Shown piece after piece: positions 38,443 through 50,345 of a stretch of DNA of 64,000 nucleotides. The first letter of the stretch is position 1; the number at the start of each line of letters is the position of its first letter. Origin of the DNA: Phycisphaerae bacterium (lineage in GTDB: Bacteria > Planctomycetota > Phycisphaerae > Sedimentisphaerales > Anaerobacaceae); contig JAAYBV010000018.1 in NCBI GenBank assembly GCA_012744475.1, positions 62,001 through 126,000 of the forward strand, written 5' to 3'. The notes under the pieces are model-generated. The model ran no database searches, was not told the DNA's origin, and worked only from the letters and a program-made list of their open reading frames with translations. A program made the position numbers and the translations under genes.

Positions 38443-38598
38443 GGATTCTACCGCACTCGCCGCCCCCTGGACAGCAAGAATAGGACCCATACGACCTATC
38501 CGCGCCGCCGCTCCCCCACGCGTCCGCCGGGCCTGTCCCTTGTGCCTCACTTGCCACCTAGGTGGCCGGCTGCGAACCGCAATACACGAGATACGACC

Positions 38599-38627
38599 TT
38601 GACTTTGCCGGGATTCCTCTGTAGACT
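38599..38627 (+). promoter_or_regulatory. Promoter of the HD-phosphohydrolase/YwgA operon
   Basis: TTGACT and TAGACT are separated by 17 bp. The leader to the ATG at 38898 is unusually long (about 265 nt) and contains no convincing ORF, so it may be regulatory. Confidence 0.6.
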
Positions 38628-38897
38628 CAATGGCAGGTGTGCGAAGGAGACCCATGCGTGGAGAGGCTCTAACAATTCGTCCCGCTGTTTCGAAGCCGCC
38701 CATCGCAGCGTGCGACAGGGATTTGGCGCTCGCCACGGGAGACAATCCCGTTCGCATGAGATGGGGTCCGCCTTCGTCTGTTGACGATGAGCCAGCGGAC
38801 GTGTCACTTGAGCGAATCAGATCTTCGAGCAGGGCTGGGTCGGCGAAGGGTGAGGGGCAAAACAGGGAGAATCGAAAGACAGGCTGAGGACAACAAC

Positions 38898-40280
38898 ATG
38901 GCCATTCAACTGCGCGATCCTGTCCATGGTTTCGTTAGGCTCGATCAGGAAGAAGTCAAGCTCCTGGACACACCCGCAATCCAGCGATTGCGAAGGATTC
39001 GTCAGCTGGCGATGGCCAACCTTGTCTATCCAGGGGCGCTTCATACTCGATTCGACCACTCGATTGGCGTTGCACACGTAGCCAGTCAAATGGCCAGGGA
39101 ACTGGAGCTGGACGAACATGAGGAGGTGAAATTGGTCCGCCTTGCTGGCCTGCTGCACGATGTCGGACATGGACCGTTCAGTCATGTCTCGGAAAAAGCC
39201 CTTGACACCTACGCCGACCGATCCAAGTTGAAGGGTGCGAAGAAGGCAGAGAAGATCCACGAATTGATCTCCGCCCAGATTATTCAGAACGACCGTGATA
39301 TCGTTCGCCTCCTGGGAGAAGAGCGGTGCCGACAGATCGTCGTCCTTTTGAGCCAAGGCCACGGACAGCCGGCGATGAAATCGATCGTGTCCGGTCCCCT
39401 CGACGCGGACAAGCAGGACTACCTGCTCCGGGACAGCCTTTTCTGTGGGGTCAAGTACGGTGTCTTCGACATCCATCAGATGCACCGTTCCCTAACGATC
39501 GAAGGCCCTAAGAATGAAAAACAACTGATGATCAAACAGGATGGAATCCATGCAGTCGAGCAGTACGTCCTGGCCAAGTACTATCTGACAACGAACGTCT
39601 ACAGGCACAAGGTCCGCCTGATAACGGATGAGATGATCGTCCGTGCCATCATGCTGGGTATAGAGAAAGACGAGATATCTGGACTGAAGAAGCTGTACAG
39701 CTATGATGGTACGGACGGATTCGTCAGGAATTATTGCACATGGGATGATGCCAGGTTTCTTCAAAAGTTCTGTGTTACCGCAAAGGCTGGCCGATGTCAG
39801 GCCATGCTGGCCAGGCTTCTGCATCGACGTCTTCTAAAGCGTATCTTCGATGCCCGTGCCAACGAATTCCCCGCAGAGATACGGGATAGGCTCAAGAGTC
39901 TGGTAGAACCTGACTCACGGCCTCTTCGAGAGCGCGCTGAGCGCGAGATCGCCAAGGCTCTGTCAAAATTGACCGCGACGCCCATTGACTCGGACGAGGT
40001 AATCGTTAACATCTTTAGCATCCGTTCCGTCCGAGAAACGTCTCGAAACGACGAAGCGGGCATCCTGGTGACCGGCCAGGAGCCCAAGCCGTTTGATCAG
40101 GTCTCAACGCTCTTTGCATCAATCAATGAGCAATATACAGATGAGTATGTCGAGGTCTACGCCCCAATGGAATGGAGCACAGACACAGACAAGGATCGCC
40201 TCCGTCGTGAGGCAAGAAAACCGATCCTCCGACTGATTGAGACTGCCTTTCAGGAGAAAGCCAAAGGAGGCAAGGCATGA
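38898..40280 (+). CDS. HD-domain phosphohydrolase (SAMHD1/YwfO/dGTPase-like)
   Basis: The protein has 460 residues from ATG 38898, with GAGGA upstream; a longer open frame lacks homology. The family start IQLRDPVHGFVRLDQEEVKL is clear. The metal site has His54 (TRFDHSIGVAH), His87-Asp88 (LLHDVGHGPFSH) and a downstream Asp in the DADKQDYLLRD region. Such proteins cleave dNTPs to nucleosides and triphosphate or hydrolyse related nucleotides, and some bacterial relatives restrict phage. The stop overlaps the next start as ATGA. In Bacillus the HD protein YwfO is likewise next to ywgA. The last ~60 residues are charged helix. Confidence 0.9.
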   Translation: MAIQLRDPVHGFVRLDQEEVKLLDTPAIQRLRRIRQLAMANLVYPGALHTRFDHSIGVAHVASQMARELELDEHEEVKLVRLAGLLHDVGHGPFSHVSEKALDTYADRSKLKGAKKAEKIHELISAQIIQNDRDIVRLLGEERCRQIVVLLSQGHGQPAMKSIVSGPLDADKQDYLLRDSLFCGVKYGVFDIHQMHRSLTIEGPKNEKQLMIKQDGIHAVEQYVLAKYYLTTNVYRHKVRLITDEMIVRAIMLGIEKDEISGLKKLYSYDGTDGFVRNYCTWDDARFLQKFCVTAKAGRCQAMLARLLHRRLLKRIFDARANEFPAEIRDRLKSLVEPDSRPLRERAEREIAKALSKLTATPIDSDEVIVNIFSIRSVRETSRNDEAGILVTGQEPKPFDQVSTLFASINEQYTDEYVEVYAPMEWSTDTDKDRLRREARKPILRLIETAFQEKAKGGKA

Positions 40281-46307: not shown

Positions 46308-46546
46308 CGCCGCCCGGCCAGCCGCAACGCGTGGCCCATATCCGGTACCTGCGATTCGCAGCTACCGGCCGCACTCTGCCCGTGTATTCAACGGGGGATC
46401 GCCATTCGGCTCTGTCCCTGTTAGCCCCCCAGCCGGGTCGGGTGTGCCTTGCACGCCGAATGTGAACGACGTGGGACGGGCCGGTACTCCGACAGCACGT
46501 CCAAAACACCATCGGTCCGGCCACCGACGAACCGCGTGCCGCAGGC

Positions 46547-46646
46547 CCACGTTGCATCATCCACCTGTCCGACAAGCGCATCATGCCTCGATCCAAGATC
46601 ATGGTCCGCCCGTTGATCTGCTAATGATTATCGAAAGGCCTGACCC
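46547..46646. repeat. Flank X1 of an inverted-repeat-bounded cassette
   Basis: This 100-bp element is about 90% identical to X2 (49208-49307). Its last 26 bp (46621-46646, from CTAATGATTATCG to CTGACCC) are the exact reverse complement of the first 26 bp of Y1 (48860-48885) and Y2 (49818-49843). It lies 240 bp after the GH116 gene; 46308-46546 has no gene. Confidence 0.8.
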
Positions 46647-46682
46647 TGAACCCTCTGACCCTGAACCCTCAACTCCCCCTGT

Positions 46683-47795
46683 TCATTTGGCGGCCGCTTG
46701 CAGCCTGGGGACAGGGATGTTCGTCAGCACGAACGGGATTTTCACCTCCACCGGCCGAACAGCAATGACATGACGAATCATGTCGTAGTTGTCCCCATAG
46801 ATCTGCTCCTCTTTGCCGCAACACTTGGCGCCCCTGCTGCCCGAAATGTCCCCAAGAACCCCCTCCATTTGAAGAATGGCAGATACCCTCCTTGCCGAAC
46901 TGAACAACTCGGTTCTGATAACCGCATAATCCCCAAAAGCAACGCGGCTGCTCAAGTAAGGCGGGTCATTAATCCCAAGAACAGGACTTCCCACGTTTGA
47001 TTTCACCCACGTTGTATAGGAGTAGAGGGCAATCGCGTTCTTCGGCCTGCGAGAGGTGTCTATGACGCGTTGTCCCGACGAGGAGGACGATGAAGAAGGA
47101 CTGACGTATTCTATCGGCTCCGGCAAGGGCGGCGTGGTCGGATCGACACAGATCACCAAATCTGGCACCGCTTCTGTTTCTTGACATCCATAGTTGGGGT
47201 CGAACGGAACGTCCACATCGATCACATCGTCCGCACAGAGGGCGTAGATATATCCTCCAACCACCGCGATCGAGGACGGTAACGTGTTATTCGGGTCAGT
47301 TGACAACTGGATCGTCATGGTGAATGGAAACCACTTCTGGGGAGTGTACGTGAATCCCTGATGCCAATACCACCCATATTCTTGATAGGCGCGACGACCG
47401 CCTGTTTGAGCATTCTCACACTCTAGAGCACGGCCGTCATTATCAAGTAACTCCCAGACTCCAACCGTATTCACATCAAGGGTAATGAAGCTACTCCTAT
47501 CGAGAATACCTACCCGCCCTGAAAGAACAAGAACCGGCAAGCCCGAATCGGCCCCAGCACTACTCTGAGGATTAGAGACCTTGACGGACAACTGCACCGA
47601 ATCCCAGACGAATTCGAATGCATTTGCCAAGTCCCAGTCAAGATCATTGACATCCCCTGATGGAAGAACCTCAGAAGGTGTATCTCCGGCCTCGCGCCCG
47701 ACACCGTCACTCCGAGCTTCAAAGCATCCCAGCAACAAGACCACTGCGCAGATCAGAGAAGACAGATACCGCCCATACTCTTGGAACACTCTCAT
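46683..47795 (-). CDS. Orphan lipoprotein (cassette 1 cargo)
   Basis: The protein has 370 residues. ATG 47795 is preceded by a strong GCAGGAGG. The signal peptide ends in the lipobox LLLGC. The middle is beta-rich with many Val, Asp and Pro residues, followed by a Pro/Ser-rich linker with eight consecutive Ser codons near residue 220. A final domain of about 130 residues includes KNAIALYSYTTWVKSNV and HVIAVRPVEVKIPF. I recognise no family. Codon usage is clearly less GC-rich than in the surrounding housekeeping genes, which suggests foreign origin. It is the second gene inside the first cassette. Confidence 0.7.
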   Translation of the reverse strand: MRVFQEYGRYLSSLICAVVLLLGCFEARSDGVGREAGDTPSEVLPSGDVNDLDWDLANAFEFVWDSVQLSVKVSNPQSSAGADSGLPVLVLSGRVGILDRSSFITLDVNTVGVWELLDNDGRALECENAQTGGRRAYQEYGWYWHQGFTYTPQKWFPFTMTIQLSTDPNNTLPSSIAVVGGYIYALCADDVIDVDVPFDPNYGCQETEAVPDLVICVDPTTPPLPEPIEYVSPSSSSSSSGQRVIDTSRRPKNAIALYSYTTWVKSNVGSPVLGINDPPYLSSRVAFGDYAVIRTELFSSARRVSAILQMEGVLGDISGSRGAKCCGKEEQIYGDNYDMIRHVIAVRPVEVKIPFVLTNIPVPRLQAAAK

Positions 47796-47850
47796 AGATA
47801 CACCTCCTGCTCTTACCATGTGAATTCGCCCACTATTGTTCGCGGCGCTG

Positions 47851-48882
47851 TTATCCGAGCAGCGGGTAATGGAACGTGTCCGCAGGCTTCACTTCACACA
47901 CCTCTGCGCTGAGGATCTGATTCACGTTCGCCTCTGAGTCGTGCACACCGGTGACGGTCCATTGGTCTACGCCACCGTCTGGCAGCATCACATTGAACAC
48001 TACCGTCCAAGTATCCCCAACAAAGGTAAACACAGGGTCTTCGCACAGTTCACGAATCACCAACTCATCGTCCTCCAGGTACTTGAGCCAAGCTCTGATG
48101 GGTCCTATCTTACGCAAGCCCACGCTTGAGCAGGGTATCAGGCGAGGTCCCGTGCGTAAGAATGTGACTTCATTCAAGAAGGCGTACACTCTTTCCGGAT
48201 CGCTGAAATCGTCGCGCGCAAAATGATACTCCTGCAGGATCTCATTCATGGCTGTCAGTCCGCGTCCCGAATTGACGTGGACAAACCCGGCGCTCTTCTC
48301 CATGAATATCCCCGTCTTACCCCGACTCGTCGTTACCATGAACACGTTCTTTGAAGACCAGTTGTATTCAACCACCGCGATTCTCCAGATCTCGTCATTC
48401 AACACCATTTGTGCTAAGGGCAATAGTGCCGCTGGCGTACCATCCGCTATAATCTGTGGCGTCAAGAGTCCATAGGGAGCCCTTACCAAGGCCTCTCGAT
48501 ACTTGGAGGCATGCCGGGCAGCCGGAGGATCGCTTGGCATCTCACTTGGCGCGATGATCGCCGCAGAGCTCCTAGTGTCACGATCCATTTCCTCTGACGC
48601 ACTGACCGCCCTGCTGGTGCGTCTGACGGAGTTCGCGCAGCCACCTGCCATGAGACAACATGCAATCGCCAGAAGGGCTACAAGCGTATGTCTGATGCAG
48701 ACCCGTTGCCCTCCGAAGAGCAGGGGAGTCCTCGGCAAATCTCTCTCTTCTACCGGTTCCGCCCGCGTCGCACTCCCCAGCGGGTGTTTCGAGGCGGCAG
48801 GCAACTGCCTGTTGATCGTGCTCAGAGATCGATGAACACAACCGATTGGAGAGGGTTCGGGGTCAGGCCTTTCGATAATCAT
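47851..48882 (-). CDS. Orphan secreted/lipoprotein whose start lies in the cassette flank
   Basis: The frame encodes 343 residues if it starts at ATG 48882, inside flank Y1, where GGAG is 5 nt upstream. The first eight residues (MIIERPDP) are encoded by the inverted repeat. A typical lipoprotein signal (RHTLVALLAIACCLMAGGC) does not begin until about residue 62, and no usual start codon lies just before it. The first 60 residues therefore look like non-native sequence joined to an older lipoprotein gene, or the true start is non-canonical. The mature part is a mixed alpha/beta domain of about 230 residues without a known family. Codon usage is again low in GC. Confidence 0.6.
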   Translation of the reverse strand: MIIERPDPEPSPIGCVHRSLSTINRQLPAASKHPLGSATRAEPVEERDLPRTPLLFGGQRVCIRHTLVALLAIACCLMAGGCANSVRRTSRAVSASEEMDRDTRSSAAIIAPSEMPSDPPAARHASKYREALVRAPYGLLTPQIIADGTPAALLPLAQMVLNDEIWRIAVVEYNWSSKNVFMVTTSRGKTGIFMEKSAGFVHVNSGRGLTAMNEILQEYHFARDDFSDPERVYAFLNEVTFLRTGPRLIPCSSVGLRKIGPIRAWLKYLEDDELVIRELCEDPVFTFVGDTWTVVFNVMLPDGGVDQWTVTGVHDSEANVNQILSAEVCEVKPADTFHYPLLG

Positions 48883-49012
48883 TAGCGCTCCGCATGCACT
48901 TGCTGGGCGGCATTGGGAGCCGGACTGTGGGAACCTCTCCACGCATTGGCTTCCCTTCGCACATCCAGGAGATAGTCTACAGGAATCTCCCGGCCAAATC
49001 AAGGGCGTATCT
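48860..49012. repeat. Flank Y1 of cassette 1
   Basis: This ~152-bp element differs from Y2 (49818-49969) at about two positions. Its first 26 bp are the inverted repeat. On the minus strand it presents GGAGCGCTAATG, a ribosome binding site and start codon pointing into the cassette. The homology ends at GGCGTATCT, where Y2 runs into 7-bp tandem repeats. Confidence 0.85.
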
Positions 49013-49207
49013 GGAGTCTCGCGGGTGGGGCGGTTACGTCCGCAGGGGAATCAGGGGCACCGGGTACCTTTGTCTTTCGCAGGGCAAGGCTCTCAGAACC
49101 CCACGAGACCCACGCGGACCGTTAACGATTAACGAAGTGGCTGACCCTCCACGCTCACCACCTCCCCGCTGATCCGGTCCTGAAGCACTCCGTCCAGCAA
49201 CAAACCA

Positions 49208-49307
49208 CCACGTTGCATCACCCACCTGCTCGACAAGCTCATCATGCCTCGATCTTAGACCACGACCCGCCCGTTGATCTGCTAATGATTATCGAAAGGC
49301 CTGACCC
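49208..49307. repeat. Flank X2 of cassette 2
   Basis: The 100-bp element matches X1. Its last 26 bp (49282-49307) are the reverse complement of the start of Y2. Between Y1 and X2 lie 195 bp with no gene and a TTAACGATTAACG motif near 49122. Confidence 0.8.
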
Positions 49308-49318
49308 CAAATCCACTC

Positions 49319-49840
49319 TCAGGATTCATTGGCGCTGCCGCCTGTGCAGCACGTTGAGCATCCTTGTCCTCCTCGTCTGCCCAGACTACTCCTCAATGTG
49401 CGACCACAATCATGGAAGAAGGGAGAAAACAGGACAACGATCACAGCTACCCAAGTCAACGGCAGCACCCACGCTCGGACGAACAAAGAGACTGATTCAG
49501 GTGGGCCAATACTTGAGAGACGCACACAGGCAAATGTCGCACAGAGGAGCAACCAAAGCACCAAGATAGTCGCAGCGGGACGAACCACCCAGCGGTCTGC
49601 GGGAGACAACAGGCCCCACAGAAATGATACAGAGAACACTGCTGTTGCACGGATAGCAGGGTCTAGTATCCAGCCAATTCCGCCGATACCGAACCCCACT
49701 CGCACGGATTCGCACCACGAATAGACAGGGTCAGCGGCTACCAGGAGGATAGGGTACGCAAACATCATCGCTGCGACGACGAGCACAACCTCAGGCAGAG
49801 GTGACAGTGGTGTATTGGGGTCAGGCCTTTCGATAATCAT
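49319..49840 (-). CDS. Small membrane protein (cassette 2 cargo)
   Basis: The protein has 173 residues from ATG 49840, which lies in flank Y2 with GGAG upstream; the first eight residues (MIIERPDP) come from the inverted repeat. Four hydrophobic helices are visible: PEVVLVVAAMMFAYPILLVA, AIRATAVFSVSFLWGLL, AATILVLWLLLCATFACV and WVLPLTWVAVIVVLFSPFF. The C-terminal tail has several Cys. No family is recognised. It is the only gene of the cassette and ends 11 bp from X2, so the cassette fits it tightly. Confidence 0.55.
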   Translation of the reverse strand: MIIERPDPNTPLSPLPEVVLVVAAMMFAYPILLVAADPVYSWCESVRVGFGIGGIGWILDPAIRATAVFSVSFLWGLLSPADRWVVRPAATILVLWLLLCATFACVRLSSIGPPESVSLFVRAWVLPLTWVAVIVVLFSPFFHDCGRTLRSSLGRRGGQGCSTCCTGGSANES

Positions 49841-49969
49841 TAGCGCTCCGCATGCACTTGCTGGGCGGCATTGGGAGCCGGATTGTGGGAACCTCTCCAC
49901 GCATAGCTTCCCTTCGCACATCCAGGAGATAGTCTACAGGAATCTCCCGGCCAAATCAAGGGCGTATCT
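49818..49969. repeat. Flank Y2 of cassette 2
   Basis: It is a nearly exact direct repeat of Y1. The inverted-repeat match with X2 extends from 26 to about 29 bp here. It supplies the start of the membrane-protein gene on the minus strand. Confidence 0.85.
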
Positions 49970-50001
49970 CGAATCTCGTATCTTGTATCTCGTATCTCGG
50001 G
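49963..50001. repeat. 7-bp degenerate tandem repeat
   Basis: Units of CGTATCT, CGAATCT and CTTGTATCT-like variants run in tandem. The same unit recurs at about 51752-51785 (inverted), 56853-56886, 57128-57165 and 61650-61683. Confidence 0.7.
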
Positions 50002-50138
50002 GACGGGGTCCCGGTCGTCGGCGGGGCTGGTGTGCGGGCGCACGCCCCACGGCACGCCGGAAGAGGCAGGTTGGGCTTGGGTCCGTGTTCGCCCACCAGA
50101 CAAACCGGCGGCGCTGTCCGGGCGGGGTCCTGGCCGGG

Positions 50139-50345
50139 TCAGTTGTCGGCGGGTTCGCGGCCGCAACACTTCTTGTACTTCCTCCCGCTGCCGCAGGGGC
50201 ATGGGGCATTCCGGGCGATGCGGGGCTTCGGGGCGATGGACTCTATGGGTATGGGAATCGCAGGCATCGGCTCACCCGCCGGCGGTCCGGCCGCCTCTGC
50301 CGTCAGGCCCAGCGCCTGCAGGGCGACGAGCGACGCCGTGCGGCG
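50139..50345 (-). pseudogene. 3' remnant of a SEC-C motif protein
   Basis: The minus-strand frame ends [22 protein letters not shown] then stop, a textbook SEC-C zinc motif as at the end of SecA and many YecA-like proteins. The frame is closed by an in-frame stop at about 50346, and only a linker-like Pro/Ile stretch precedes the motif. The 5' part of the gene is missing, so this is probably a truncated gene. It sits between cassette 2 and the fic promoter. Confidence 0.65.

What the first reader, a model, noticed from the sequence alone, without database searches (positions are those of the whole stretch)
48860..49843. Cassette flank Y supplies a ribosome binding site and start codon
In both Y copies the minus strand reads GGAGCGCTAATG and the inverted repeat encodes MIIERPDP as the first residues of the cargo frame. 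In cassette 1 the real lipoprotein signal starts some 60 residues later and has no normal start codon, so the flank may express captured genes as fusions.
Basis: partly seen in the sequence, partly recalled or inferred. Interest (0 to 1): 0.65.

Follow-up and report, generated by a model that had tools for sequence, protein, structure and literature searches.

The report
Shared start signal before toxin-linked genes

Summary
The observed letters are real: both Y copies read GGAGCGCTAATG on the minus strand (48880-48891, 49838-49849), and the 27-bp inverted repeat (IR) then reads MIIERPDP, in frame with the next ORF. Y is a composite. Its outer ~100 bp is a conserved promoter-like and leader module (TTGA-N17-TAGACT, SD GAAGGGA, ATG). 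I aligned 20 copies from this genome and 4 of 5 same-genus genomes, in front of unrelated genes. Its start codon lies 64 nt upstream of the MIIERPDP ATG, in another frame, with a stronger SD (-9.5 against -5.8 kcal/mol). In a relative, this start opens an ORF carrying an RHS core plus C-terminal domain, so the module can start a captured gene as a fusion. In all six IR-capped copies the leader ORF ends at a TGA inside the IR. The IR is a separate genus-limited repeat whose GGGTCAG ends face outward in small MITE-like units. MIIERPDP is in frame with the next ORF in only 4 of 6 copies (P = 0.10), and the extension in cassette 1 shows no coding signal. It remains plausible only for cassette 2, which has no better start. 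There are no expression data.

The parts
48907..49006 (-). promoter-leader module P, copy 1 (outer part of Y): -35 TTGATT 49002-48997, 17-bp spacer, -10 TAGACT 48979-48974, SD GAAGGGA 48958-48952
   Evidence: 20-copy alignment A1; SD energy
48863..48946 (-). leader ORF MRGEVPTVRLPMPPSKCMRSANDYRKA, 27 codons, ends at TGA inside the IR
48860..48886 (-). 27-bp inverted repeat (IR); minus strand carries the proposed MIIERPDP start, ATG at 48882
49865..49964 (-). promoter-leader module P, copy 2: -35 TTGATT 49959-49954, -10 TAGACT 49936-49931, SD GAAGGGA 49915-49909
49821..49904 (-). leader ORF MRGEVPTIRLPMPPSKCMRSANDYRKA, 27 codons, ends at TGA inside the IR
49818..49844 (-). IR; proposed MIIERPDP start, ATG at 49840
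47851..48738 (-). cassette 1 lipoprotein ORF from the in-frame TTG (295 aa); frame open further up to and through the IR
46683..47795 (-). cassette 1 second gene, lipoprotein-like (370 aa); likely start 47795 with strong SD (-13.9); relative at C25, 37% identity
49319..49840 (-). cassette 2 membrane-protein ORF (173 aa from MIIERPDP); no better start found downstream
46620..46646 (+). IR at the X side of cassette 1; no SD before its ATG (0.2 kcal/mol)
46547..46619 (+). X flank, copy 1
49281..49307 (+). IR at the X side of cassette 2
49208..49280 (+). X flank, copy 2; reading outward it runs into a fragment (DGVLQDRISGEV) also found before YD repeats at other loci
49121..49147 (+). further degenerate IR (22 of 27); with 48860-48886 it bounds a 288-bp outward-ended unit that contains P copy 1
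38594..38708 (+). third P copy in the window, without an adjacent IR, upstream of the ORF 38781-40280

Best explanation
Flank Y is a composite. Its outer ~100 bp is a genus-wide promoter, ribosome-binding-site and start-codon module (P) whose natural place includes the beginning of RHS-core toxin ORFs. It has been copied in front of many other genes, several of them relatives of the genes that follow RHS toxins (likely orphan immunity genes). In six copies of this genome, P is capped after ~19 codons by a separate dispersed 27-bp terminal repeat (IR). RNA polymerase would start at P. Ribosomes would start at ATGCG(T/A)(G/C)GAGAGG and make a short leader peptide that stops at the TGA inside the IR. 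The downstream gene would then be translated from its own start or by reinitiation. MIIERPDP is what the IR happens to read in the +1 frame and is at most used in single cases such as cassette 2. Shown: repeats, alignment, reading frames, SD energies, the RHS fusion in a relative. Inferred: transcription, translation, immunity role.
For: 20 aligned copies of P: TTGA at -35 in 19 of 20, second and sixth base of the -10 invariant, no gap between the two boxes, ATG in 19 of 20. SD at that ATG -9.3 or better in 16 of 20, against -5.8 to -6.1 at the IR ATG position in 6 of 6. P found at E < 0.001 in 4 of 5 same-genus genomes. In G004 C44 the P start codon opens a 361-aa ORF with an RHS core (89.1 bits) plus C-terminal domain, followed by a 475-aa protein 33% identical to the protein after P at C46; the C46 ORF and the RHS ORF share their first ~42 residues (E 1e-7). 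Three gene types have P both with and without IR: ankyrin lipoproteins (C10, C27), a 378-aa-type gene (window, C25), a 547-aa type (C10, G001). The leader ORF is open to the IR's TGA in 6 of 6 IR-capped copies. IR-capped P copies resemble each other (mean 82%) more than P copies of the same gene type do (55, 59, 73%).
Against: No RNA or protein data. A simple sigma-70 scan does not flag the Y promoter. Differences between copies are not concentrated at third codon positions in codons 2-10 (25/35/31), so the leader peptide need not matter, and the conserved letters may serve DNA or RNA. Some P copies precede genes with no visible toxin link (a PEP-utiliser-domain protein in G003, a 3-keto-disaccharide-hydrolase-like gene at C42). 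Cassette 2 has no better start than MIIERPDP.
Confidence: 0.66

Rival explanations
1. One reading: the Y/IR junction (GGAGCGCTAATG) is the working start, and cargo proteins are made as fusions beginning MIIERPDP.
For: SD GGAG with 5-nt spacing; ATG kept in 5 of 6 Y-IR copies; in frame with the next ORF at C85a, C85b, C10a, C10b; cassette 2 has no better start.
Against: In frame in 4 of 6 (P = 0.10; 0.045 if only the five copies that keep the ATG are counted). SD no better than 17% of random 17-mers. C10b ankyrin gene has its own start with SD -8.1. The cassette 1 extension scores no better in its frame than in the others, while the gene body does. At C50 the frame is closed before the gene, at C42 the ATG is lost. 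X-side IRs have no SD.
Confidence: 0.15
2. IR-bounded mobile gene cassette: IR, cargo and IR move together and are inserted between fixed X and Y sequences, as an integron- or transposon-like capture system.
For: Cargo lies between inward-facing IRs with X on one side and Y on the other in window cassettes 1 and 2 and at C10.
Against: IRs also bound small outward-ended units with X or Y inside and no gene (122 bp at C50, 137 bp in G004, 288 bp in the window). Single IRs lie alone in relatives. No empty X|Y site was seen, and no transposase was noticed among the ORFs listed at the IR copies; the one Y1 transposase hit (C22) has no IR on its 7-kb contig.
Confidence: 0.12
3. P acts mainly as an RNA regulatory leader: a hairpin pairs the SD (GGGAAGC) with GGTTCCC just after the start codon and controls initiation.
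For: 95.8% of cells paired, covariation score 0.282 against 0.252 in shuffles, slid versions all lower. No third-position bias.
Against: Weak: 25 of 500 and 33 of 500 shuffles reach the observed values; one pair changed on both sides in one sequence; no Rfam match up to E = 1.
Confidence: 0.2
4. P and IR are debris: 5' ends of old RHS genes and a dead repeat that spread by recombination, with no present role in the window.
For: The RHS loci here are fragmented (RHS core truncated at the IR in C58; G004 C22 core ORF stops at 122 aa; cassette 1 lipoprotein without a start at its strong SD).
Against: Promoter spacing, SD and start are kept across 20 copies and several species while the surrounding sequence is not.
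Confidence: 0.15

Closest known systems
Orphan (displaced) rhs-CT / cdiA-CT and immunity modules (PMC3150448, PMC3967940; passages read)
   Same: Fragments of the RHS 3' end with variable C-terminal regions, followed by candidate immunity genes, in arrays with repeated RHS pieces.
   Different: Those papers state that orphan CT fragments usually lack translation initiation signals; here RHS core-CT ORFs of a relative begin with a conserved promoter-like stretch, SD and ATG, and the same start module also precedes likely orphan immunity genes and other genes.
Correia repeat enclosed elements of Neisseria and other promoter-bearing MITEs (PMC2649163 start of abstract in a listing; PMC10969869 passages)
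   Same: Small genus-limited repeats with inverted ends close to genes; promoter sequences that can drive neighbours.
   Different: In most copies here the promoter module is outside any IR pair; only one 288-bp unit (48860-49147) has P between outward IRs. P also brings an SD, a start codon and a leader ORF.
Rickettsia palindromic elements (PMC10969869 passage)
   Same: A repeat that encodes a conserved peptide and can lie in frame with genes.
   Different: The IR peptide MIIERPDP is not consistently in frame; the P start, not the repeat, supplies the N-terminus.
REP/BIME repeats with REP-associated tyrosine transposases (recalled; PMC3733652 seen in a search listing only)
   Same: Short dispersed repeats in inverted pairs.
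   Different: No transposase linked to the IR; the 27-bp IR has no stable hairpin of its own.

Membership tests
MITE (for the IR units) | terminal inverted repeats at both outer ends of a short non-coding unit | tested here: met
   outward pairs of 122, 137 and 288 bp, ends 19-27 of 27 matches to the consensus; holds for 3 units only, most IR copies are single
MITE (for the IR units) | target-site duplication | tested here: inconclusive
   flanks of the two shortest units printed; no duplication obvious by eye, no systematic test
MITE (for the IR units) | related autonomous element with transposase | tested here: inconclusive
   one Y1_Tnp match in the genome, no IR on its contig; other transposase families not searched
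Orphan RHS toxin module (for ORFs that start at P in G004) | RHS-associated core followed by variable C-terminal domain, no long RHS N-terminus | tested here: met
   TIGR03696 at residues 53-128 of 361 aa; the second copy stops at 122 aa, inside the core
Orphan RHS toxin module (for ORFs that start at P in G004) | usually no translation initiation signals (as published) | tested here: not met
   ATG with SD -9.5 in both G004 copies; so a variant, not the usual form
Orphan immunity gene (for window cargo) | homology to a gene that follows an RHS toxin | tested here: not met
   no window cargo protein matches one; shown only for the C46, C10a and G001 proteins
Orphan immunity gene (for window cargo) | protects against a cognate toxin | not testable with these tools
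   needs an assay
Promoter | transcription starts there | not testable with these tools
   sequence conservation only; consensus scan negative

The most novel reading that the evidence does not exclude
A self-spreading expression module: promoter, SD, start codon and ~20 leader codons that turn displaced RHS toxin tails into expressed fusions and have been copied, together with a repeat cap, onto unrelated immunity and membrane genes, so that whatever lands behind it is switched on.
Probability: 0.25. Interest if true: 0.65.

Novelty: new variant of a known kind. Interest (0 to 1): 0.42.

Why it matters
Displaced toxin tails in RHS and CDI loci are thought to be mostly silent because they lack start signals. 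A conserved start module placed directly in front of them, and in front of likely orphan immunity genes, would be a different way to keep such a repertoire expressed, and it gives a short sequence by which a whole set of otherwise unrecognisable genes in this genus can be found. For the finding itself it shows that the eye-catching start at the repeat is probably the wrong one.

Tried and rejected
Empty-site test: the GH116 relative closest to the window gene (G002, 77%) has different neighbours, so it says nothing about insertion. Homologues of the cassette 1 lipoprotein: 0 in the other 160 of 161 order genomes searched, so start conservation could not be tested there. Rfam: no match up to E = 1 in 46400-50200. 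REP/RAYT origin: one Y1_Tnp hit, no IR near it. Hairpins of X and Y as single strands: z-scores between -1.2 and +0.6, nothing unusual. Third-position bias in the leader: none. I first read the IR-bounded blocks as transposed cassettes and dropped this after the outward-ended units appeared.

Known slips in calls: one search translated the lipoprotein and ankyrin rows in a wrong frame (redone); one search took two rows (C25b, C27) on the wrong strand (corrected); one segment is not a multiple of three, so its coding frame is the second value printed. Notebook entries call the C50 protein DUF2971-like; that was by eye, and Pfam gave no match.

Full report
The finding. Both Y flanks of the window read GGAGCGCTAATG on the minus strand and the 27-bp repeat then encodes MIIERPDP, in frame with the next ORF. 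This is in the sequence, and the repeat is far beyond chance. The own genome holds 14 IR copies with up to 3 mismatches, against 0 for the reversed pattern, and 21 matches to a looser 22-mer.

What Y is made of. A profile of six Y copies found further places where only the outer part matches, and alignment shows where the homology ends. The outer ~100 bp (module P) reads, towards the cargo: TTGA(C), 17 bp, TAGACT, about 25 bp, ATGCG, with the SD-like GAAGGGAAGCT just before the ATG. It occurs next to an IR at six places (C85a and C85b in the window, C10a, C10b, C42, C50) and without an adjacent IR at others. In total 20 copies were aligned: 13 in the own genome and 7 in same-genus genomes. A search of five same-genus genomes gave matches at E < 0.001 in 4 of 5; G005 had none below 0.1. 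In the 20 copies TTGA is kept in 19 (C10b lost it at a junction with an RHS-linked fragment), the second and sixth bases of the -10 are invariant, there is no gap between the boxes, and the start codon is ATG in 19 and ACG in 1. A simple promoter scan does not report the window copies, so 'promoter' rests on conservation.

Which start codon. The SD at the P start is -9.3 kcal/mol or better in 16 of 20 copies, -8.5 and -7.9 in two, and weak in the two G003 copies (-5.7, -4.2). At the MIIERPDP ATG position it is -5.8 to -6.1 in 6 of 6, a level that 14-17% of 3000 random 17-mers reach, against 2% for -9.5. The ORF from the P start runs 27 codons and ends at the TGA inside the IR in 6 of 6 IR-capped copies. 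The MIIERPDP ATG lies inside it, 64 nt downstream, in the +1 frame. That frame joins the next ORF at C85a, C85b, C10a and C10b, not at C50, and at C42 the ATG is gone: 4 of 6, P = 0.10; 0.045 if only the five with ATG are counted. At C10b the ankyrin gene has its own start with SD -8.1. In cassette 1 a strong SD (-10.0) lies before GTC and ATC, which are not start codons, and a TTG with SD -6.4 lies 12 codons upstream; the native start may have been lost. In cassette 2 no downstream start has a usable SD, so MIIERPDP remains possible there. The stretch between IR and lipoprotein shows no codon signal in its frame (-0.11 against -0.12 and -0.07 for its longer part), whereas the gene body does (0.06 against -0.32 and -0.32); the stretch is short, so this is weak evidence.

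What P does elsewhere. In G004, P at C44 opens a 361-aa ORF: a leader of about 24 residues shared with C80 and G004 C22, then an RHS-associated core (TIGR03696, 89.1 bits) and a C-terminal region, followed by a 475-aa protein. P at C22 does the same, but that ORF stops at 122 aa, inside the core. The 475-aa protein is 33% identical over 455 aa to the protein that directly follows P at C46 of the own genome, and the C46 ORF and the RHS ORF share their first ~42 residues (E 1e-7). This fits an orphan immunity gene that kept the start of a lost toxin gene; that is inference. The 547-aa protein at C10a is 63% identical to the one after P in G001 and 27% to the protein that follows the RHS gene at C65. 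The ankyrin lipoprotein at C10b has a relative after P at C27 (35%), and the second gene of cassette 1 has one in the P locus at C25 (37%). The window cargo proteins have no Pfam or NCBIfam match and no homologue next to an RHS toxin here, so their immunity role is only suggested by company. P also precedes genes without such a link, for example a PEP-utiliser-domain protein in G003.

Spread. IR-capped P copies are on average 82% identical among themselves, whatever gene follows, while P copies before the same gene type with and without IR are 55, 59 and 73% identical. The IR-capped form has therefore probably been copied between loci or evened out by gene conversion. The seven own-genome copies without IR average 68%.

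What the IR is. It is confined to few genomes in the data searched: 5 of 99 genomes matched the pattern including the own genome, with G004 (6 places) and G005 (1) in the same genus, and single matches with 3 and 2 mismatches in G030 and G036 of other genera; a scan of 84,980 genomes gave two contigs of one Phycisphaerales MAG. In compact units its GGGTCAG ends point outwards and X or Y lies inside: 122 bp at C50, 137 bp in G004, 288 bp in the window (48860-49147). X, read outward, runs into a fragment DGVLQDRISGEV and YD-repeat sequence at several RHS loci, and at C58 the IR-X is fused to a truncated RHS core. No transposase was tied to the IR, and no empty site was found.

Possible RNA layer. 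A stem GGGAAGC/GGTTCCC would enclose the P start codon. The support is weak (25 of 500 and 33 of 500 shuffles reach the covariation score and the pairing), and Rfam has no match.

Literature. [quoted passage not shown] PMC3967940 says that orphan rhs-CT fragments usually lack them and are expressed after recombination with the main gene. MITEs with promoters and in-frame Rickettsia elements are reviewed in PMC10969869 (passages); the abstract start of PMC2649163 was seen in a listing. Three paper searches listed nothing on this module, which is not proof that it is unpublished.

Verdict.

Noticed in passing
window 38594-38708: Third copy of the promoter-leader module in the window, without an adjacent IR, upstream of a 499-aa ORF (38781-40280) whose family was not tested.
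   Followed up: partly
window 49121-49147: Degenerate IR (22 of 27) between the two cassettes that closes a 288-bp outward-ended unit around Y copy 1.
   Followed up: partly
window 47795-47819: The second gene of cassette 1 most likely starts at 47795 (SD -13.9), not at the upstream ATG 47819 (SD -3.3).
   Followed up: yes
L075 6194-6294 (C46): Three IRs in tandem, 34-40 bp apart, next to an X copy.
   Followed up: no
L074 8970-10058 (C65): RHS core ORF whose C-terminal part contains HELRHALD, a metallopeptidase-like motif by eye, followed by a 449-aa candidate immunity protein and IR-X.
   Followed up: no
L073 9689-9813 (C58): IR-X fused directly to a truncated RHS core, as if the repeat marks a recombination break.
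   Followed up: no
L109 337-3325 (C64): RHS core and C-terminal region, then a GLUG-motif protein, then a diverged IR-X: same order as at C65.
   Followed up: partly
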